Shown here piece by piece: positions 33,347 through 62,300 of a DNA stretch of 64,000 nt. The stretch is from Ilex aquifolium (taxonomy: Eukaryota > Streptophyta > Magnoliopsida > Aquifoliales > Aquifoliaceae). The notes beneath the pieces are model-generated. The model did no database searches and had not been told where the DNA came from. It saw only the letters and a list, made by a program, of their open reading frames with translations. Positions within the stretch are counted from its first letter, which is position 1; the number at the start of each line of letters is the position of its first letter. A program made the translations under genes and the position numbers. The stretch spans positions 434,001 through 498,000 of the forward strand of contig OX637393.1 in the NCBI GenBank assembly GCA_951799425.1, written 5' to 3'.

Positions 33347-33810
33347 TATTTTTATAAAATATAAATTTAACACATTAAAAAGTAATTTTTTTAATAATGT
33401 TAGGAATAGGATTGAGTAGCGTTATGGGTGCAGTGGGATGTGTGAGAGTAAGGTTGGTGGTGGTGGCAACGAAAAAAAATTACAAATTACGTTCATCGTC
33501 TGTCGGTGCCAAATCATTATTTCGGTTAGTTATTTTATGAAGTGATGAACAAAAATTTATCGGTATCTAAATCTCAAACTAATCATCAATATTGGGAAGA
33601 CTCAATCCAATCAAGACTCAAGCTTGTACATATTTATCATCCCCATTAAATTGAATTATTTTTAACTATTATTACAAGAATTCTTTTGAGAATTACAATG
33701 TAGTATCTATAGTTTGTTTAACCGAATTTGGGGAGATTATATGGGATATTTGGTTAAAATAATATGGCGGGCCCACATATCCCTGCTTTGGGTATGTAAA
33801 ATTGGGTGGG
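33347..33810. other. Short spacer between Helitron 2 and solo LTR D
   Basis: AT-rich. Words such as GGGCCCACATATCCCTGC near 33,770 look like the end of a decayed MITE. Nothing coding. Confidence 0.35.
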
Positions 33811-36256
33811 TGTCACGCCCAGCCCGGTCTCCCAAGCATGAGATGCGACTAGGTTTTTGATACACCTATTTACATCTGGATTAATAAAATACCAAATAAT
33901 TTCACAGGTGCAACATCACAACCCATCACCTTAGACATTAAGCATGATGGTAATACCTAACTCATAACATGTACCATATATAACACATGTACCAATTGTT
34001 TGTTTTTCAGGTTATAGACATATACACAATCCCACACCCACATAGCATATATCACAAAGTATGTTTGTTGAGTCTATTTACAATTATACACTATTAACCT
34101 TCTATAATAATCTCTCACTCAATATAATATACAACCCAACAAAATAAATACACAAATCCTCAACCTATATCACGTACTCATTAAAACTTAATACATAATC
34201 AACCGACATACTACCTGAGTAATATCACACTAACTTCATTGGACCACTCTGGACTGAACTCAATCCCACAAGACAATATTCAACCGACTGGACAGTGGAC
34301 TAACCTGTAATTTTCTCTATAGCACCTGAAAAGGAGAACCTATAGGGGTGTGAGCTAAACCATATGCTCAGTGAGTATACATGCTGTATATGAAATGGAA
34401 ATGATAGTAATACACAAAAGTAGGTAGATACTACGTAGATACACGTATCAAACAACAACATCAATATAATTCCAAATAATTCACAAGTCACAACACATCC
34501 ATACCACCCCTCGTCGGGTAGTCGATCCCACATGGATCTGTGTCTCCTGAACCTCCTGGGAACACCACAGTGCTAGCACACCACTGCACGCCCAATGATC
34601 AGGCTTCGACGCTCCTGCCTCAAATAGTGCGCCACATTCCACAATACACAATACAAAGCATCATTCAATCACATGAGCACATAACACAAAATCATGGAGA
34701 AATGCTATTAAATTCTATCATTACTATCATCTTATAATAGCATTTTCAAAACATATAAAGATATACAGCCACCTCGAGTGTACAGATCTACGGGCCTTCA
34801 GACCTATCGGTGGATCTTTTCGGTATTTCCGTATCTGTCTCAATACCAACTGTCCTACCTGTTCCACCTAACACATTTGTAATTACAATATCAATATGTT
34901 TATCACATCTAATAGTTAATCATGCACTAATGCATGCAAGATGATTAATCCCAAAGTGCCCGGTAACCCCAGTTATCGCACTGTCCACTCACATACTGAC
35001 ACATTAGATTTAGGGATCACATTTCCTCCCCAAATCTCTAAAAGCACTCACATTAATCACAATTAGGATTAAGTAGGTCAAACACATTAACTAGGGGCTC
35101 AGTTTCACACATTTCGACCCTGAATCCTAAAAACTGCACTTCCGGCATTTCATATATTTTGCACCGGATATTATATTCATTTGCATTCGAAATTTACATT
35201 ATCACATCAAGCATCAATTAAAAATGCAGCATGCAAAATTTCGGATCAATTGGATTAAAATTCACATGTGATGATAACATTTATAAACTAGGGTTTCGGC
35301 GTCACCGGTAGGGGTGTTAAACGTGTCGGGTTAAATGAGTGACATATGAAAAATATGTAAACCCATACACGACACGTTTAATAAACAGGTAAAAAATTGA
35401 AACATGAACTCGAACTATTTAATAAACGGGTAACACGACACGACTCGTTTAACACGTCTAATTTTAAACGAGTCAGGTTGGGTTAAGTCGGGTTAACACG
35501 GTAAACCCCTCGTTTGACCCATTTACCTATTTACCATCCATTTGACCCATTTAACACAATAAACCACTCGTTTGACATATTTACTTGTTTATTTAAAAAT
35601 GCTATATAACTTTATAAAACTAACACAAATAAATGTGATATTTATGAATACTATATCATATTACAAAGTACAAACTACAATCCAAAATAACCAAATTCCA
35701 CCAATAACCATATTACAAATCATAAATACAATCCGAAATAACACAATTACACCAAATAACAATCATATTATAAACCACAATCCCAAACAACCACAAATTC
35801 CATGATTCACAAAATCCCGTGAAAGATATCAAATCTCCACCTCCACGACAACGAGCAGATTCAACAACCAAATTTTCATGCCCTACACAAATTAAAATGA
35901 AATATTATATAACATTAATAATTAAATAGACTCATAACTAGATAAGTAACAAAAACTTGACATTACCTCTCTTTAGTCATGATCAATGATAGATATAGAA
36001 TTAGAACATTGAGCGGATATAACTTTATTAGACTTCATATTTTGATTGAAAACATCATCATCTATTTCCCCTTCCGAATCATCACTAGAATCATCTACAA
36101 CTAAGCACAACAAAACATAAATGAATCAATGATCACATGAATTAGGATAATTAGAAAAATAATACTAGTAAAAATGGAATCAAACTTACTGCTCTTCCCA
36201 TGAATCCAATCTCTAGTACAAATCAAAGCTTGAACAGTTTTTGGCAAAAGTGAACT

Positions 36257-37110
36257 TCAATACTTATTCAAAACTCTACCACCGGTACTAAATGCAGATT
36301 CAGATGCAACTATAGAAATAAGAATTGTCATCACATCACAAGCCAACTGAGACAATATAGGATGTCGAAACTGCTCTCCTTTCCAAAAGGTTAGAATATC
36401 CAAGTCCTTCTTTCGATCAAGCCTTTTTTCATTAAAATACAACTGCAACTTAGTCACTCGAAAAACAAGAGAATCTTCTTCTTCACGTTTTTCAAAATCT
36501 TACATTTTGTACAAAATCATTACGAATATATAATAAACCACCTTGATCAGATGTCAAACAAATTCTTTCAGGAAGGGAACCCAACACAATTTTAAGTTTA
36601 TCCTTCTATCTCTTATACATTTTTAACACATCTGACTTTGTAGTATTCCTAGAAGGCATCTTGATATTCTCATAAGCATACTTGAATATTGCTCTAATAC
36701 CCTCATATTGGACAAATCGAAATGGTAAATCATGCTTAAGTAATTGCCTCAATCGCTAACTCACAAAACTTTTCAGGATCAAATTTTGTGGATCGCATTA
36801 GCATAGATCTTTGACCTTGACTTAGAAGTAATTGTCCAATATCCCCAATGTCTTTTTTCACACATTTTTCCATGTGAGCATGCATATTACCAGTTCCATG
36901 ACTAGACTCACATATATATTTGATACCACAAATATTACATTCAGCACGCTTCTTGCCATTTGGATATTTTTCATTTAATTCTGTAAAGTATTTCCATACT
37001 ATTGAAGTCTTTTGTCGTTTACGATTAGATTTACCTTTTTCTATAGTTGTACCAGTTGATGTCTGTGTTGTTGGAGCTGCAACTACCTTAGATTCATGCC
37101 CGACCTAATC
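36257..37110 (-). pseudogene. hAT transposase remnant (BED finger + dimerisation domain)
   Basis: Minus-strand reading from about 37,105 (TSTGTTIEKGKSNRKRQK) goes through the BED zinc finger with Cys-x2-Cys and His pairs. It then gives VKKDIGDIGQLLLSQGQ and KFDPEKFCELAIEAI, after which stop codons and frame changes appear near 36,600-36,750. The hATC domain near the C-terminus is readable as one frame, including the SAFSTGGRVL signature. The DDE core normally about 300 residues long lies between LTSD and the dimerisation domain and is absent, so this is a deletion remnant, not a working gene. Confidence 0.85.
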
Positions 37111-37470
37111 TTCTTCATCAGAAACTATAATGTGTTAGAAAGAATCCATTTGTTTAAGGCAAAAAAATAGAGTTACACTGATATCTCCCCCCAACACACA
37201 CAACACACAAAATAATACATAAGAAAAAATAAACAGTATAAACTGATACAATAAGTTTGTGCAGCTATTAAATGTTTTGAATTTTACTTATATAAACAGA
37301 TGGGCTTGAGTGAATTAGAAGGAGCAAGCAGACACCTACTGAATTCAATGACTAGACACCTATTGGCTTTAATGCTTGCCCAGTATTGTATTTGCTTGCC
37401 CAATATTGTGACTTTTCTTGTATCTCATTCAAACCTCATGTGATATCTATCTCTCTCTCTCAATATTTAT

Positions 37471-37475
37471 TAACA

Positions 37476-37542
<67 letters not shown>
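37471..37542. repeat. (AC)n-(AT)n compound microsatellite in the hAT element
   Basis: About 28 AC units followed by about 7 AT units. It lies in the non-coding half of the hAT element. Confidence 0.95.
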
Positions 37543-38921
37543 GTGCATATAACAAGTTGCAACTTCATGTAAAATTTACTCTATGTAAATTTTTTTCTGG
37601 GTGTTCTAAAATGGAGGAAAATGGTATTAAAACACTTTCAAACATCAAGTAAGATCTATCTCTCTCTCTGGATACATACACATACTTATGTATATAATTA
37701 TGACAAGTTGCAACCTCAGATAAAATTTTCTTTCTCGGTCTCTGTGTGTGGGGGGGGGTGTGTGTCTATCTCTGTGGGTGTTTTGAAATGGAGAGAAACG
37801 ACATTAGGGTGAGGAAATTCTTTTAAAAATCCTTACTTTTAAGTTTCAAGGCCTCAAGCAAACCAACAACAGAATTCCAAAAAACATATTCTGATTCTGA
37901 TTAAATCTTCATAGGCATCAAAATGAAACTAGTAGAGAAGCCTTCAGCTTGAATCCAATTTTTCAATCCAAATTCATGGAGAAACTTCATTAGGATCTAA
38001 ATAATACAGATCTAAAATCACTTCATTAGGATCTGAAATACCGATCTAATACAGCGACTCAAGCTTCAGCCATTCCGTGGTCAGCGACGATAGCTTCAGC
38101 CGTTCGGTTCAGCTCAACGTAGATGGAGAGAGGATCACAGGAACAACACCAAAGCTTGGAAAGAGAGAGAAAAAGAAAGGGAGGAAGAGTGGAGGGCCTG
38201 GAGTGGAGGCGCTTCAGCCGTTCAGCGTAGATGGAATTTGATTAGGGTTAGGGAAAAATAACTTTATATATTTTCTGTGTAGCTGTCATTAAAAAAAAAA
38301 TCTGGTTAATTATTTTAAAATAATTATTAATTTATTATTATATTAAATTTATTTAAACGGGTTATAAACGGGTTGATATATCTCACCCGAACACGACCCG
38401 TTAAACGTGTTAAACGGGTTGACCCGTTTATCACCCGAACCCGTTAAGATCTCATCCAAACCCGCTTAATCCGTGTCGATTCGTATCGGTTAATCGTATC
38501 GTGTTGGATTTTGACATGCCTAGTCACCGGCACCCATTTCCAACCTCTATCGCACTTTTTATTTAAAACAGCCACACTTAAACTCACACACACATTTAAT
38601 TATGCTAAACAACCCCTTAATTGAACCCTTAAACCCCCCATTTCACTCCCATAATTTTGGTTTCAACCTAGCCCACGAAAAGCATCCCGAACATATCAAA
38701 TGGTCATTTTCCACACTTTTCTCGCACCCAATTAAATACCCATTTAAAACCCATTCTTAACAGCCCTAAATTATGTTCAACACACTTAATTATACTCACA
38801 AAAATCTGTTTTGAAATTAAAATAAAACAGGCCATTAAATTAAAATAAAACAGGCCATTAAATTAAAATAAAATAGCCCACACATAACACACACACATGC
38901 TTAAATTTTAATCACACATAC

Positions 38922-41900
38922 TGTGACGCCCCAAAATTCGGGGGTCCGTTGATCACCCATCAACCCGCGAAATGCCTATGGATATCGTGTAACTCGATAT
39001 CACACCGTTGTGTCCCATTTATCGGGATCCATAATTTAACAAAATTGGGCAAAGTCTCCTTTGTACGGGGAACTCTACCCAAAACCTAACATGTACAATA
39101 TACATTAACATGACCCATCTGAGGCCCAATATAACACAATGACCGCACCAGGTCCATTTATCCCTACTCATATAATAACATGCAATGTTACATTAACATA
39201 GTCTATAAGAGTTCGATTACAACTCTTTTACACATTACATGTCAAAAAATATAAATTTTCAAGTTTGTTTTACAAAAACAATGCATTAAAAGCCACCAGT
39301 CGGTTTTTCTTCATCCTTGCGGCCCCGAATGAGAGTCGTCCACCGGCGTATATCCCATACCTGAAATGTTTCCCGTATAAGGTGAGCCAACGCCCAGTAG
39401 AGAATTTCCTACAGAGGCTACTCCCCCCCCCCCCCCTAGATGCAAATGAAGAGTGTACATGCAACAATTTACACACACATCCACTATTCCTTAAAAGAAC
39501 ATGCATTAAGGGCTGGACTTCTACTATGTTATGCCATGAAATGAGATGCGACTCACTCATGCAAATTTTCCCGAGTCCTCCCCGACTCACACAACACAAT
39601 GCAGTACCAATATGTAATGAACCCGTCATGGACGGAAAAACATCCAATGATCGTTTTGAATAAAAGTCATGCATTTTATAAATCAGATCATTATGGGATG
39701 ATACTCATTGACAGAGTATGTTTTTATTAACAAAATCTTGTGTTTTGTTGGGCAACGGATTTTGGTATCTCAACCTTCGGTTCCGTAAACACCAGCACTT
39801 TTCTGGAATTTCACCGCCGACAAAATGCCTGAACTATGTGACCGGGCTTTTCACCCGAGGGAGAGTCTAGCCCTGCTTGCTATATCCGACACAAGTTTTT
39901 CTCATGCAATCATGCGACTTCATGTGACCATCGATCCACATTTCCAAGTCCACATATCAACCACCAAACAAGGTGTTTGATTAAACATGCACCTCACACC
40001 CATGACTTATGCTCATGAATGTGATGCTCCCATACACATGAAATGCAATGCTTCATTTCACACTTTCCACATGTTCAAGATGCAATGAATGCCTTATGAA
40101 CAATTTAAACCACATATCAACATATGTTACGGCAATATATGTCTTAAGCATACAATTACCATAAAACATCATGAAACTAATATCTTAGAAACATATTAAC
40201 ATATTTCACCACAACATTCAACATGCTAAACATAGTCATGTAACGCATGATTTCAATCACTCAAGGTGTTTTATCAATCACCTTCAAGGCAACCTTCATG
40301 TTGAACACAAATCATGCCTAAATTTCACTAAGTTACAAGAAAATTCACAAGTAACTATCATGCATCATTCTCAAGCTAAGAGATAGCCTAAGCCAATTCT
40401 CTACCCTTTTTCCTTAATTTCATAACTATACACAATAGGAGGAACCCAAATGGAAGGAAAACTCTACAAGTCATCCTATAATTCATGTCACCAATCCATT
40501 TTATTCACAAGACACAATATTAACATTTAGAGTGCCTACACACTACCATGTCCTAAGTGGTTTCACAAAGAACTTCCACACCAAATCTCATGATAGAATT
40601 TGTTCCTAGTCATTTCTACCGGAATAATCCGAATTAGGAGGATCCCTACATCCAATTAAACAAGGAAGTGATCTAGGCCATTTCCATAACCATTTAGTAA
40701 GTGTTAAGTCCCTAACACCCTACTCATCCCATATAAACATTTCATATAAAACACCTTGGTTAGGAATAATCCCAAATAGGAAGAATCCTACAAGTATCAT
40801 ATTACACAAGAATTTATAGTAATTTCTACTCCACTATTTCAAGATGGAATATATTCTCTCCACTTCCAACACCCATTTAATCAAGTCACCAACAATAGGT
40901 AAGAGTCTTATACAAGGTCTCATACATCAACCCCTTTCATAGGAACATCATAGAATGGAATAAGCCCAAAACAGTCCATAAATTCAACCCAAAACAGTCC
41001 ACAATTTCAGCTCCAAATCAGTCCAAAAACAGTCCGCAATTTCAATCCAAAACAACTTAAAAACAGTCCGCAATTTCAGCTCCAAATCAGTCCAAAAACA
41101 GTCCGCAATTTCAATCCAAAACTACTTAAAAACAGTCCGCAATTTCAGCCACTAAACAGTCCAAAAACAGTCCGCAAACGGCCATAAAACAGCCCCAATA
41201 AACAGCTATAAGATAGCCCATAAAACAGCCATAAACAACCCCTTAAAACAACCATAAAACAGCCCATAAATCAGCCACTAAGCAGCCCACAATTCCGCCA
41301 CTAAGCAGCCCCTTAAACAGTCCATAAACGGACACAAAACAGCCCCAATAAACAGCCACAAAAACTGTCCATGAAAGTGCACAAATTCAGCCCATGAAAA
41401 TGCACAAAAACAGTCCATGAAAGTGCACAAATTCAGCCCATGAAAGTGTACAAAAGCAGTCCATGAAAATGCACAAAAGCAGTCCATGTATCAATTGCAA
41501 GCTAGAATTTAGCTTAAGTTATTCCTACACTCAATTCTTTATTTTCCTTAACAATACACAAGTGATATACATCAACATACACTTAACCACCCCTTATGAA
41601 CATGCTAGGTGGGAAATGAACCAAAGTAGGAAGAACCTTACCTCTAGTAGCGTGAAGGGAATGATAGAATTCCCAAAAACACCAAAGAAAGCCTCCAAGA
41701 CTTGATTTCTCCAAGATCACCCTTTTGGATCTTCGGTGAAATATCTTGTTTTTGGTATGTAGATGTAGCCCTCGTCGACGTGATCGATTTCCTCTCTTGG
41801 CTCGACGGAATCCGAGCAACGGAACTCCGGGAAATCGAAGGAGAAGCTTGAAGAACTCTCTTTTCTCTCTTCTCTCTTCTCTCTCTTGGGCGGCTGAACA

Positions 41901-42346
41901 AGGCTGAAGAATGGTATATTTCTGCTGAAATATCCCATTTAAGACCCTATTTATATTTTTATAAGACTTGGCTCAGATCGCGCCAAGTGTCCCCCGATTA
42001 TTCGGGTCCGTTTTCGCCCCGAAACGATTTATTTCGTACTAGTTTAAGTTCAAATTAATTTTATTTGAACTTTTGTTCAATTATACATAAATTTTATAAA
42101 ATTTATATTTGGGGACCTTTGTGAGGTCATTCGCCACCCAGCCGCCTCGAACGACGTGCAAAAATTCGACTATCTCGGAATTCGACGAAATTTGGCAAGG
42201 TAATTAGATTTTGCGATACGAATCCAATGACGAACTCCGTTTCCCCATCCGAGCTCTAGAACATGAGCATTTTAAATACGCATAAGGGTGGTAAATTACC
42301 ATTTTGCCCTTTTTCAGAAAAAGTTCAAATTTGCCCGAGTTTTACA
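38922..42346 (-). mobile_element. Solo LTR (A), 3.4 kb, inserted in solo LTR D
   Basis: It begins TGTGACGCCCCAAAATTCGG and ends GAGTTTTACA, with CATAC on both sides (38917-38921 and 42347-42351). It matches solo LTR B (47766-50091) along its length. Shared stretches include the left ~250 bases, the CATCCTTG(C/A)GGCCCC block, the TAGCCCTCGTCG block and the right ~350 bases. On the minus strand a TATA box (TATAAATAGGG, near 41,945-41,955) and GA-rich leader show U3-R order, so the LTR lies in minus orientation. Long-LTR Ty3/gypsy type is inferred. No internal genes are present. It exceeds copy B mainly through the minisatellite at 40,950-41,490. Confidence 0.88.
40950..41490. repeat. ACAGTCC minisatellite inside solo LTR A
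   Basis: Degenerate tandem units built on AACAGTCCGCAATTTCA. A ~69-bp higher unit is seen twice in near-perfect form (41,010-41,150), followed by ~20-bp units of CAGTCCATGAAAGTGCACAA type (41,365-41,490). The array is absent from solo LTR B. Confidence 0.85.
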
Positions 42347-42613
42347 CATACACACACTCTTACCTTCACCTTCTTCTTGTTTTCTCTCACTTTTGGTTTG
42401 GCATGGTGGTTGTTCCTCCTTTTCTCTTCTTTCTTCTCCCTCTCTACTTGGACTAGGAGCACCCACCAAGCTTATTTCTCTCTCCCTCTCTTCCTCCTTG
42501 CTCTCGGCTTAAAGGAAACACACATATAATTTTTTCCTCTTTTTGTTTACTCTCCCTCACTCTCGGTTCAGACAAGAAGAAAACACACACACACACACAC
42601 TGAATTATTGTTT

Positions 42614-42665
42614 TTTTTTTGGAACAGAACTACAACACAACTCCTTAAAAGGAGAAGTGCAGTAG
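42614..42665 (-). mobile_element. 52-bp retroposed tail with 16-bp target duplication
   Basis: CACTGAATTATTGTTT occurs at 42598-42613 and again at 42666-42681. Between them, read on the minus strand, is CTACTGCACTTCTCC, a short palindrome CTCCTTTTAAGGAG, GTTCTGTTCC and an A-run. It is best explained as a strongly 5'-truncated SINE or LINE copy inserted in solo LTR D. Confidence 0.75.
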
Positions 42666-42985
42666 CACTGAATTATTGTTTAAACACACACACTTTACTA
42701 CACCTTAAAGTACACACACACACATTACTACACCTTAAACACACACACACACACACACGGCATACACAACACATAGCCACCTAGCCATCAAAATGACTCA
42801 CCTACTTCTTAAGTTAACACATGTAAAGATGACTCACTTAATTGGGTAATTACGCTTGCCTCCCCCAAGTTCGTAAGTGATTTCAAAATCAACCCACTAC
42901 TATTTTCATAGTTTCATATAATTAAAATTTAACCCACATAATTATGTTAATATGCATGCAATACATGATCGAGTCTCACAGTGGG

Positions 42986-44184: not shown

Positions 44185-44640
44185 AATTGTTATAAAGGGT
44201 GCAATGGTCATTTTAGCATCTTTGATTTGGATGTGTGAATAGGGCCCACAAAACAAATGTTCTCCATCCGAAATAAGGATAGGATGTGATAATATGCATT
44301 AGGATCCAAATCACCCCGGACAACTTTGCATTGGGTTGGATTGGATTAGATTGGGTTAAAAATCCAATCCAACCCAATCCTCCATGTCAAGCCAAACACA
44401 CCCTATGAGGGTGTTTGGATCGCCAAGGGAGGATTGGGTTGGATTGGATTGGATTTGAATTAGAATCCAATCCAACCCAATGCAAAATAGTCCAGGTTAA
44501 TTCATTCTTAATGAATATTATCTCATCCTATCCCATCTTTGGATGAAGAATATTTGTTTTTTGGACCTCATTCACATGTATAGATGAAAGATGGTGAAAT
44601 GACTATTGCACCCTTTGTAAAAAAATCTAATTCAATCATA
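44185..44640. repeat. ~450-bp imperfect palindrome (inverted MITE pair or foldback)
   Basis: The centre is near 44,400 (ACACCCTATGAGGGTGTTT). The left arm, in reverse, gives GGATTGGGTTGGATTGGATT, CAACCCAATGCAAA, TATTATCACATCCTATCC and TGACCATTGCACCCTTT. The right arm gives GGATTGGGTTGGATTGGATT, CAACCCAATGCAAAA, TATTATCTCATCCTATCC and TGACTATTGCACCCTTT. The arms pair over about 200 bases with moderate mismatch. Each arm also has its own small GGATTGG/CCAATCC hairpin. Confidence 0.85.
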
Positions 44641-44929: not shown

Positions 44930-45547
44930 TATTAAGTTTGCCTTATGAAGACCTTCCCAAACAAGAAAAAAAAGCAATGTGGATAACAATGGAATAAATA
45001 CAACAGCAGTGAGTACAAGAAGCATGAAGACATGGCCAATCCACTAGTGTTCTCCAAGCCATCCCTCTAAAATGCCAACATGGGGAACCCGACTTGAACT
45101 AGATCCAGAAAGCACATCTTCTGGTGATTCATAAGACAAAAACAATAGATTACTTCACCAATTCACCCTATGTTAGTAAAAAGAATCAACATGAATATAA
45201 TACTTCCACCCAAACGTTTCGAATGCATCCCCCATAACATCGCTATAAGAAAACGCCATCCCCGACTTACTAAACCGAAGCAACATTTCAATGGAAGCCT
45301 TAGTCAAAATTGCAGCAATTATGATCAATGCAACCCCAGGAACAACTCCTAACAGCTTCAAGGTTGAAGGCAATCTCATAATCCCAGCACCAACAATGGT
45401 GCAATACAAATTAAACACCAACCTAGTAAAGGAATCTCCCTTAATTTTATCAAACACATGGTGATGGTCTTCATCTTCGCCACCGCTTCTACTCAACAAA
45501 AAGGCCATCTCAACAACCATTTGATGAGAGAGAGAGAGATAGCACAA
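44930..45547 (-). pseudogene. AVT6-type amino-acid transporter pseudogene (exons 1 and 2 only)
   Basis: Exon 1 (about 45204 to 45520 or 45547) encodes FTRLVFNLYCTIVGAGIMRL, PSTLKLLGVVPG, TKASIEMLLRFSKSGMAFSY and SDVMGDAFETFG. This is the N-terminal part of plant AVT6 vacuolar amino-acid transporters (SLC38-like), and ends at a GT donor. About 45,150 to 44,940 reads EDVLSG, VPHVGILEGWLGEH, then a stop codon, then W and FMLLVLTAVVFIPLLST. This is the next family segment, where intact members have a W at or near the stop. No later exons lie to the left, where the palindrome and other repeats begin. It is thus a truncated, interrupted copy. Confidence 0.75.
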
Positions 45548-47765: not shown

Positions 47766-50091
47766 TGTGACGCCCCAAAAATCGGGGGTCTTTTGTCAAC
47801 CCGTTGATCACCCATCAACCCGCAGAATACCCGTAGATACCATGTAACTCGATATCACACCGTTATGCCCCATTTACCGGGATCCATAATTTAACAAAAT
47901 TCGGGCAGAGTCTCCTTTGTACGGGGAGCTCTACCCAAAACACAACATGTGCAATCATACAACATTTAATCACATGATCCATCTGAAGTCCAATATACAT
48001 CAATTCATACTCCCACATCATGAATTTATACATCAAACATAGTTAATACAAGTTCGATTACAATCATTTTCATATATTTACATGTCCAAAACCGAATTTC
48101 ACAAAAGTTTTACAAAATAAGGTTTAAAAGCGACAAGTCAGTTTTTCTTCATCCTTGAGGCCCCAAATACGAGCCGTCCACCGGTGTATAACCCGCACCT
48201 GAAATGTTTTCTCATAAAGGGTGAACCATGCTCAATAGGGTATCTCCTAAAGAGACCACTCCCCAACCTAAGTGCATATGAAATGTCCACATGCAACATT
48301 CAACAAGCAACAACCAGTTCAATCAAGAATATGCAATTCAATGTTGAAAATCACCATGTCATGCCATGAAATAAGATAAGACTCACTCATGCACTTTAAC
48401 CTGAGTATTCACTGGCTCCCATCGCCCCTGCAATGCCATGAGTATAAAATCGGGCATTCCAAGCCCTCGCAATTGATGTTGTACATCCAATGACTTTTTA
48501 AAATAAATCATGTGTCTTTGTATAAAACAAAATCATGTGTCTTTGTTTAAAACAAAATCTTTGTTGGGTAGCGGGATTTTGGTGTCTCACCGTCAATTCC
48601 GCACACCGATATACTTTTTTGGACTTGCACCTAAGGAAGTGTATAAACCATTAATCGGGTCTTGCACCCGAGGGAGAATCTAGCACTGCTTGCTATACCC
48701 GACACAAGTTTTTCATACGACCATGCAACTCAGCCAGACCTAGGTCCAACCTTCCCGAGTTCACTTATCAACCTCCAAGAATGGTGTTTGATCAACTATG
48801 CACACACGCCCACACTCATGCCTCATGCCCATGAATGCGTTGCCTCTGTGCAAATGCAATGTAATGTGTAATTGCAACATCAATATCATGTCCAATATGT
48901 ACAAATGTCATATGAACAATCTCAACCACATTTCAAAACATTCCATGGTTAATTATATCATAAGCATATAATTTTCATAAATCCTCATCATGTCAATATA
49001 TCATGAGCATGTATCAACATTTACATTTAACAACAATTTTTCCCAAGTATGTTATCACATAATTTCATGCAATTAACACACTTTATTTCACATAGGCATT
49101 TTATCAAACACCTTCAAGACACCAAGTCATGTAATCATATAAAATGCTCAAATTTATCACATAACTCAAAAAAAATCAGATTAAGTGATTTTCACATACC
49201 CAATCATCAAAATTAAGAAATCACAAACTAGCAATTTCTAATTATCAATTCATACTAGAATTGAATTTACCAATTTTCATTTAATCAACTACAATAGGCA
49301 AGTGTTAAAATACACATAACAGCCCACCCATTTCATATATTCATCCTAAGTTGGAAATAAACCTAGTTAGGATGAAAATCCTACCTTTTGAAGCGTAAAA
49401 CAATGCTAGGAAGCTTCAAGAACCCAAATCTTGCCAAAAACCAATTTTTTCCCAAAATGCCGTATTTGAATCTTCGGTGAAACCCGTCCTTTTTGGTATG
49501 GTTGCGTAGCCCTCGTCGCGTAGGTCAACTTTAATACTTGGCCCGAAGGATTCCGACCGACAGAACTCTGTAGATCATAGAGAGAAGTCTTAAATCTTGA
49601 TTTTTTTCTTCATTTCCCTCTCTTCCTCTTCCAAAGTTAGAACCCAACAAAACCCAGCAGAAAGTTGTGTGAAAAATCAGATTTTTTGACTCCTATTTAT
49701 ACTCTTTAACGCATGATCCACGTCGCGCCACGCGTTCCCTATTCTCGGATCCGTTTTCGCCCCGAAACGATTAAATTTTGTCCCAATTTGAGTTCAAGAT
49801 ATTTTTATATGAAATTTCTTTAAATTATAATAAAATTGTAGAAATTTCATTTTCGGGGTCATTTTTGAGGTCACTCGATACCCAGTCGTCTCGAAAAACG
49901 TGAAAAATTCGACTATCTCGAAATTCGACGAAAATTGTCTGGGTAACTAGACTTCGCGAGACGAATCCAACGGTGATGTCCGTTTCATCATCCGAGCTCT
50001 AGAAAAATACGGGTTTTCAACCCGCACCGAAGTGACAAATTACCGTTTTGCCATTTTTCCATAAAAAATTTAAATTTACCCGAATTTTACA
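47766..50091 (-). mobile_element. Solo LTR (B), 2.3 kb
   Basis: It begins TGTGACGCCCCAAAAATCGG and ends GAATTTTACA, flanked by TATAT (47761-47765 and 50092-50096). It is the same family as solo LTR A: both ends, the CACCCGAGGGAGA(A/G)TCTAG block and the TAGCCCTCGTCG block are shared. The minus-strand TATA box (TATAAATAGGA, near 49,692-49,702) is also shared. The flanking duplication is AT-only and sits in an AT repeat, so it is weaker evidence than CATAC at copy A, but the matching ends fix the borders. Confidence 0.88.
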
Positions 50092-61749: not shown

Positions 61750-62175
61750 CTAATCCGAGTCATTGCTTGGATCTATGTCATTATCAGTGACCCTTCCAAC
61801 TTCTTGTCGCACATAACTTGTAAGTCCTGGACTGGCATAAGATGGTGTGTCAGGATAATCCTTACTCAGCCCATACACTATCCAGTTTAATCGATCGGTT
61901 GCACGACCCGAAATTGGTTCAGAACACTGATTATGTTTTTTCATATGAAATATCCTGCCACAATAGTAACAAGCACCCAGTCGTTTGGAACGACGATGTT
62001 TAGCAAAATTGCTTCTGCCACACAATGGTTGTTGTTGTTTCTCTCGGATCTCAATTTTTCTCACATCCCTTGCTTTTCTCATTATCACAGCATGCACATC
62101 AGATGGGAAAATGCGTAGAACTCCTAGACTAAACCAAAAAAGTTTAGGATCCATGCTTGCTAAGACTAAAGACAT
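61750..62175 (-). CDS. Open frame of 141 codons, element-associated, unknown product
   Basis: The minus-strand frame reads MSLVLASMDPKLFWFSLGVL, then a basic stretch, then CGRSNFAKHRRSKRLGACYY and CGRIFHMKKHNQC, then an acidic tail ending DPSNDSD. The Cys-x2-Cys with following His and Cys hints at a zinc-binding knuckle, but the spacing fits no family I can name. It lies among LTR-element remains in the same orientation as the element, so it may be element-derived. A host gene is less likely. Confidence 0.4.
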   Translation of the reverse strand: MSLVLASMDPKLFWFSLGVLRIFPSDVHAVIMRKARDVRKIEIREKQQQPLCGRSNFAKHRRSKRLGACYYCGRIFHMKKHNQCSEPISGRATDRLNWIVYGLSKDYPDTPSYASPGLTSYVRQEVGRVTDNDIDPSNDSD

Positions 62176-62300
62176 TCTATCTGGTTCTTTAACGTCTGCC
62201 AGTCACAAAGACAGTTGAAGCTGCATCCGATGTGATCATGAAATACAGGTACAAATACTAAAAAAAACGCGATCCAAAAAAAATAAATTTTTTTTTTTTT

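What the first reader, a model, noticed from the sequence alone, without database searches (positions are those of the whole stretch)
33811..42980. Three-layer nest: solo LTR D holds a hAT element and solo LTR A, all target duplications intact
GTGGG frames LTR D across 9.2 kb, GTCACCGG frames the hAT, CATAC frames LTR A. This gives a readable order of events: D inserted and was reduced to a solo LTR; then hAT and A arrived (their mutual order is not set); A was later also reduced to a solo LTR. An automatic annotator would probably split D into three unrelated fragments.
Basis: seen in the sequence. Interest (0 to 1): 0.7.

Follow-up and report, generated by a model that had tools for sequence, protein, structure and literature searches.

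The report
Solo LTR holding two later insertions
An old plant retrotransposon remnant was later hit by two other mobile elements, and uninterrupted copies elsewhere in the same genome confirm the junctions; this is a clean but ordinary example of nested transposons.

Summary
LTR D (33811-42980, TSD GTGGG) is split by a hAT element (35309-38522, TSD GTCACCGG) and by solo LTR A (38922-42346, TSD CATAC). TG...CA plus a 5-bp TSD is not evidence alone: the window holds 5,259 such pairs. The genome settles it. In 16 of 20 fetched D-family LTRs the hAT junction is uninterrupted; in 2 of 20 the A junction is exactly uninterrupted; in 15 of 20 the match runs to D's last base. Pieces of relatives carry a PBS, a PPT-like tract and gag, protease, RT, RNase H, integrase and weak chromodomain matches, so D is a Ty3/gypsy, probably chromovirus, LTR on the minus strand. 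A is an LTR of another, abundant family; five other solo copies have perfect TSDs. The hAT lacks 0.9-1.1 kb that 6 of 10 fetched relatives keep. Two corrections: there are two nesting levels, not three, and whether D collapsed before or after the insertions is not readable. An intron inside the LTRs failed for D and is unproven for A. New member of a known kind.

The parts
33806..33810 (.). left target duplication of D, GTGGG
   Evidence: read directly
33811..35308 (-). LTR D, piece 1 (3' part of the LTR in sense; last 8 bases are the left hAT target copy)
   Evidence: 36 of 39 other scored genome matches to its first 790 nt start at its first base; PBS or variant beyond this end in 7 loci
35301..35308 (.). 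left target duplication of the hAT, GTCACCGG
   Evidence: only two occurrences in the window; one similar 8-mer, mostly ATTACCGG or ATTACCGA, in 16 uninterrupted relatives
35309..38522 (-). non-autonomous hAT element, 3214 bp, ends TAGGGGTGT...GCCTA
   Evidence: ends recur in genome copies; zf-BED and Dimer_Tnp_hAT remnants
36260..36499 (-). hAT C-terminal dimerisation remnant (PF05699)
   Evidence: Pfam E 3.4e-18
36546..36562 (.). 17-bp overlap at the internal deletion point of the hAT
   Evidence: 6 of 10 fetched relatives have 0.9-1.1 kb more here
36739..37104 (-). hAT BED zinc finger remnant (PF02892)
   Evidence: Pfam E 2.5e-6
38523..38530 (.). right target duplication of the hAT, GTCACCGG
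38531..38921 (-). LTR D, piece 2 (last 5 bases are the left A target copy)
   Evidence: contiguous with piece 1 in 16 of 20 fetched relatives
38917..38921 (.). left target duplication of A, CATAC
   Evidence: single copy in L034 and L036
38922..42346 (-). solo LTR A, 3425 bp, TGTGACGCCC...TTTTACA
   Evidence: left end shared by 12 of 12 fetched copies, right end by 8 of 8 windows that reached it, of 10 fetched; relative in window at 47766-50091
42347..42351 (.). right target duplication of A, CATAC
42352..42980 (-). LTR D, piece 3 (U3 side, 5' end of the LTR in sense)
   Evidence: aligned through its last base in 15 of 20 fetched relatives; PPT-like tract beyond this end in 7 of 20
42981..42985 (.). 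right target duplication of D, GTGGG

Best explanation
A Ty3/gypsy element, probably a chromovirus, integrated on the minus strand at GTGGG. LTR-LTR recombination at some time reduced it to one LTR (D, 2518 bp net). After D's integration a hAT with a deleted transposase core, presumably moved by transposase from relatives, inserted into this LTR and duplicated GTCACCGG. An LTR retrotransposon of a different family inserted about 0.4 kb away, duplicated CATAC, and was itself reduced to a solo LTR (A). Shown: boundaries, duplications, family identity of D, and that both inserts are younger than D's integration. Inferred from established LTR biology: solo LTRs arise by LTR-LTR recombination. Not determined: order of hAT versus A, and when D and A collapsed.
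For: Direct reading. 36 of 39 other scored matches start at D's left base. The hAT junction is uninterrupted in 16 of 20 relatives and the A junction exactly so in 2 of 20. D's right end is reached in 15 of 20. A PBS (TTGGTATCAGAGC in 3, variants in 4, of 7 loci) lies beyond D's left end. Matches in pieces of several relatives: gag, zinc knuckle, protease, integrase SH3 and a weak chromodomain (7 of 10 pieces matched); RT, RNase H and integrase H2C2 on one 2.2-kb piece. Two relatives of the hAT have the other 8-bp duplications CTCATATT and CCCTAGAT. A-family ends recur; five solo copies bear perfect 5-bp duplications, and one LTR pair has AATGT outside both LTRs.
Against: The A junction is exactly contiguous in only 2 of 20 relatives. 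4 of 20 relatives lack the hAT junction region and 4 do not align to D's right end. The chromodomain match is below Pfam's cut-off. No empty GTGGG site was seen and no other species was available. A 5-bp duplication alone has no weight.
Confidence: 0.96

Rival explanations
1. D is not one LTR: the GTGGG match is a chance pairing of two unrelated TG..CA ends around unrelated sequence.
For: 5,259 TG..CA pairs with perfect 5-bp repeats exist in the window; D shows no significant overall similarity to A or C.
Against: The three pieces of D are colinear in genome relatives and both ends coincide.
Confidence: 0.01
2. A finer variant of the same nest: the inserts arrived while D was still full length, and a later LTR-LTR recombination left an LTR that carries them.
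For: Nothing in the sequence excludes it; two-LTR copies of the family exist.
Against: Recombination between an interrupted and an uninterrupted LTR would have less matched length (general reasoning, not tested).
Confidence: 0.3
3. A is not the remnant of an LTR retrotransposon but a self-contained 2-4 kb gene-like unit of the Revolver type.
For: Similar termini to Revolver as quoted in PMC2851119; TATA box and splice-like signals; five other solo copies.
Against: An A-family pair at G000:C18 has a PBS beside the inner LTR and AATGT on the two outer sides; one copy (L091) continues into a PPT-like tract. Five of A's longer frames gave no Pfam match.
Confidence: 0.03

Closest known systems
Plant Ty3/gypsy chromoviruses (for D)
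   Same: RT before integrase, integrase SH3 and weak chromodomain match in pieces of relatives, iMet-type PBS (name recalled), PPT-like tract, 5-bp duplication
   Different: Only a solo LTR is left here; the clade was not tested by a tree
hAT DNA transposons with BED finger and hATC domain
   Same: 8-bp duplication, short imperfect inverted ends, BED and Dimer_Tnp_hAT remnants
   Different: Internal deletion; the RNase-H part (PF14372) seen in relative L068 is missing
Nested plant LTR retrotransposons (PMC6911290; abstract and one results section read)
   Same: One element inside another
   Different: That survey reports LTRs and the integrase domain as the least frequent nesting targets; here two elements hit one LTR
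Revolver and barley LARD LTRs (PMC2851119, PMC3203089; passages seen)
   Same: TGTgAcGCCC-type end, about 3 kb, TATA box, splice signals; reported partial homology to solo LTRs
   Different: Described in Triticeae; sequence relation not tested here; Revolver is reported to encode a 139-aa protein, whereas five longer frames of A gave no Pfam match

Membership tests
Ty3/gypsy chromovirus LTR (D) | TG...CA ends and 5-bp target duplication | tested here: met
Ty3/gypsy chromovirus LTR (D) | two-LTR copies with PBS and PPT | tested here: met
   PBS-side bases in 8 of 20 LTRs and PPT-like tract in 7 of 20; PBS or variant in 7 loci; four same-strand pairs 7.1-7.3 kb apart
Ty3/gypsy chromovirus LTR (D) | RT before integrase | tested here: met
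   RVT_1, RNase H, Integrase_H2C2 in that order on L063
Ty3/gypsy chromovirus LTR (D) | chromodomain | tested here: inconclusive
   Chromo E 0.00039, 20.7 bits against a cut-off of 25.1, on one of the PPT-side pieces, L033
Ty3/gypsy chromovirus LTR (D) | clade placement by RT tree | not tested
   no tree built
Solo LTR (D and A) | one LTR directly flanked by the duplication on both sides, no internal domain | tested here: met
   duplications; D's pieces colinear with relatives' LTRs; five other solo A copies are 3.38-3.56 kb by their end coordinates; eight longer frames of A and D without Pfam match
hAT superfamily | 8-bp duplication | tested here: met
   GTCACCGG here; perfect in 2 of 3 relatives with both ends in view
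hAT superfamily | transposase with BED and hATC, catalytic core | tested here: inconclusive
   BED and hATC remnants present; core missing here, RNase-H part present in relative L068
LTR retrotransposon (A) | two-LTR copy with PBS and duplication | tested here: met
   G000:C18 pair: PBS at L076, AATGT at L083 and L086; its left LTR appears interrupted (L087 falls inside the LTR)
LTR retrotransposon (A) | superfamily from protein domains | not tested
   no internal sequence of this family was searched for domains
Revolver | homology to Revolver sequence | not tested
   no Revolver sequence was compared

The most novel reading that the evidence does not exclude
LTRs of the A/C family contain their own intron: a TATA box, a first exon, a donor (A 41641, C 49384), an intron of 2281 (A) or 1186 (C) nt that in A holds the tandem repeats, and an acceptor (exon 2 from A 39360, C 48198), so that each solo LTR could make a short spliced non-coding RNA, as spliced cDNAs are reported for Revolver in Triticeae.
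Probability: 0.15. Interest if true: 0.5.

Novelty: new member of a known kind. Interest (0 to 1): 0.22.

Why it matters
It is a clear relative chronology with base-exact uninterrupted paralogues for two of its three insertions, useful as a test case for software that rejoins fragmented repeats. It changes nothing about known mechanisms. The possible intron inside the abundant A-family LTRs would matter more, because it would be a spliced promoter unit in a family with thousands of candidate places (9,190 at first look, 40 scored), but it is unproven.

Tried and rejected
Intron in LTR D: donor and acceptor motifs lie in D at positions like those of A and C, and a Markov test gave 4 of 20,000, but the ranges were chosen after seeing D. 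Family copies then failed it: at the putative acceptor 9 of 29 other copies have AG, 3 have AG shifted by one base, 17 have TG. Rejected for D. For A/C the donor GT is kept in 8 of 8 fetched copies (GTAGG in 7, GTAGA in 1; A has GTAAG, C has GTAGG) and the acceptor AG in 8 of 8 (6 CAG, 2 TAG), and CAG in 13 of 13 further copies. No RNA evidence, and close relatedness makes this weak. A review passage says that plant LTR elements generally lack introns, with Ogre and EVADE as exceptions (PMC12786077, passages).

D as a distant relative of A/C: shared termini only. Alignments were not better than shuffles (590 and 462 of 2000 reached the score; 195 and 405 of 500 for the left part, 237 and 495 of 500 for the right).

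The right-end argument from an 11-base terminal match was superseded by genome copies. Exact-pattern scans of viral contigs found nothing. Rfam and tRNA scans: nothing. A probe for further exons of the amino-acid transporter found one more pseudogene piece and two matches at E 0.87 and 7.1. Papers: Revolver turned up (a terminal 10-mer); searches about introns in LTRs were made, and on nests. I do not claim that nothing else is in print. Passages of PMC6317226 and PMC2829016 were seen and not used as evidence.

Another called the C18 pair full length; its left LTR appears interrupted, so I say two-LTR copy.

Full report
Observation. The window looks like plant chromosomal DNA (inference from its gene pieces) and lies at G000:C3:434001-498000 of an 800-Mb assembly. 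Direct reading gives D 33811-42980 with GTGGG on both sides, hAT 35309-38522 with GTCACCGG, and A 38922-42346 with CATAC.

Chance. TG...CA with a perfect 5-bp repeat means little: 5,259 pairs lie 0.3-12 kb apart in this window. GTCACCGG occurs only twice in 64 kb, both beside the hAT. Independent evidence was needed for D and A.

D in the genome. A search with the first 790 nt of D scored 40 matches out of 471 candidates; one is the window itself, and 36 of the 39 others begin at query base 1. I searched the three pieces of D separately, without joining them. In 16 of 20 fetched LTRs piece 1 runs directly into piece 2, with one copy of the hAT target (window GTCACCGG; ATTACCGG or ATTACCGA in 11 of the 16). 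Piece 2 runs exactly into piece 3 in L034 and L036, with one CATAC; the other 18 differ in length there or do not align through it, and in L047 about 0.7 kb of other sequence lies there. Piece 3 aligns to its final base in 15 of 20, to base 627 of 629 in L042, and not to the end in L037, L038, L039 and L041. L034 and L046 are solo copies with their own perfect duplications.

What D is. Beyond D's left end 7 loci show TTGGTATCAGAGC (3) or a variant (4), the usual initiator-Met primer site (name recalled) (the loci on the other strand were not turned in that printout); beyond the right end 7 of 20 show a PPT-like tract. So D's sense strand is the minus strand. Of ten stop-free pieces from six relatives, seven match Pfam: gag, zinc knuckle and protease on the PBS side, integrase SH3 and a weak chromodomain on the PPT side. 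A 2.2-kb piece between two LTRs gives RT, RNase H and integrase H2C2 in that order. This is Ty3/gypsy and probably a chromovirus; the clade was not tested.

The hAT. The query starts 8 bases outside the element. Of 40 other matches, 11 start at query base 8 or 9, one 32-base match starts at 4, and the rest start further in (1,716 candidates, 40 scored). Three of ten fetched relatives show both ends, and two of these have perfect 8-bp duplications (L067, L069). The window copy keeps the BED finger and the hATC domain; 6 of 10 fetched relatives carry 0.9-1.1 kb more at window 36546-36562, and L068 has a transposase RNase-H match there in one of five frames tested. The window copy is therefore an internal deletion derivative and not autonomous.

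A. Its relative at 47766-50091 has the same ends and TATAT on both sides, about 70% identical in two blocks. In the genome 36 of 56 other matches start at query base 1 (9,190 candidates, 40 scored). 12 of 12 fetched left ends break at the same base, and L076 continues into the same kind of PBS. 8 of 10 right-end windows reached the end, all at the same base; 5 of these 8 are solo copies with perfect duplications, one (L089) has unequal flanks, one (L091) runs into a PPT-like tract, and one (L086) belongs to the C18 pair, which has AATGT outside both LTRs.

Order of events.

Side line: introns in LTRs. A and C share TATAAATAGG, a donor and an acceptor in sense, and the middle of the LTR aligns poorly between them (that alignment also failed on the 5' part, which was aligned again). 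Revolver of Triticeae, with similar ends, a TATA box and spliced cDNAs, is reported as partly homologous to barley LARD LTRs (PMC2851119 and PMC3203089, passages seen). Fetched A-family copies keep both sites. D-family copies mostly do not keep the acceptor. I keep the idea for A/C only, at low probability.

Verdict. The nest is real and base-exact, and it is an ordinary kind of structure: nesting is common among plant LTR retrotransposons (PMC6911290, abstract and one section), although that survey finds LTRs among the least frequent targets.

Noticed in passing
61753-62202 (-): Open frame of 150 aa matching Viral_NABP (E 1.9e-12) and Carla_C4 (E 8.4e-5): a carlavirus-like nucleic-acid-binding protein in chromosomal DNA, perhaps an endogenous viral fragment. 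Eight neighbouring frames gave no viral match.
   Followed up: partly
47766-50091: Another solo LTR related to A (about 70% in two blocks), with TATAT on both sides; the flanks are AT-rich.
   Followed up: yes
44187-44623: Imperfect palindrome (76% self-complementary over about 440 bp), MITE-like.
   Followed up: no
44981-45547 (-): Broken amino-acid transporter gene piece (Aa_trans) with an in-frame stop; no further convincing exon found in the window.
   Followed up: partly
33206 to about 33395: Repeat in D's left flank: 39 other scored matches of about 130-200 nt, 1,005 candidates.
   Followed up: no
G000:C3:50220923 and 50228039 (L032, L033): Two D-family LTRs about 7.1 kb apart, each with PBS-type bases on one side and a PPT-like tract on the other: looks like a tandem LTR-internal-LTR-internal chain.
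   Followed up: no
L040 and L041 (G000:C7): Two D-family LTRs about 236 kb apart on one contig share the same right flank, suggesting a segmental duplication that carries the element.
   Followed up: no
L047, between positions 1948 and 2646 of the turned sequence: A D-family LTR with about 0.7 kb of other sequence close to the place where A sits in the window: possible second insertion near the same site.
   Followed up: no
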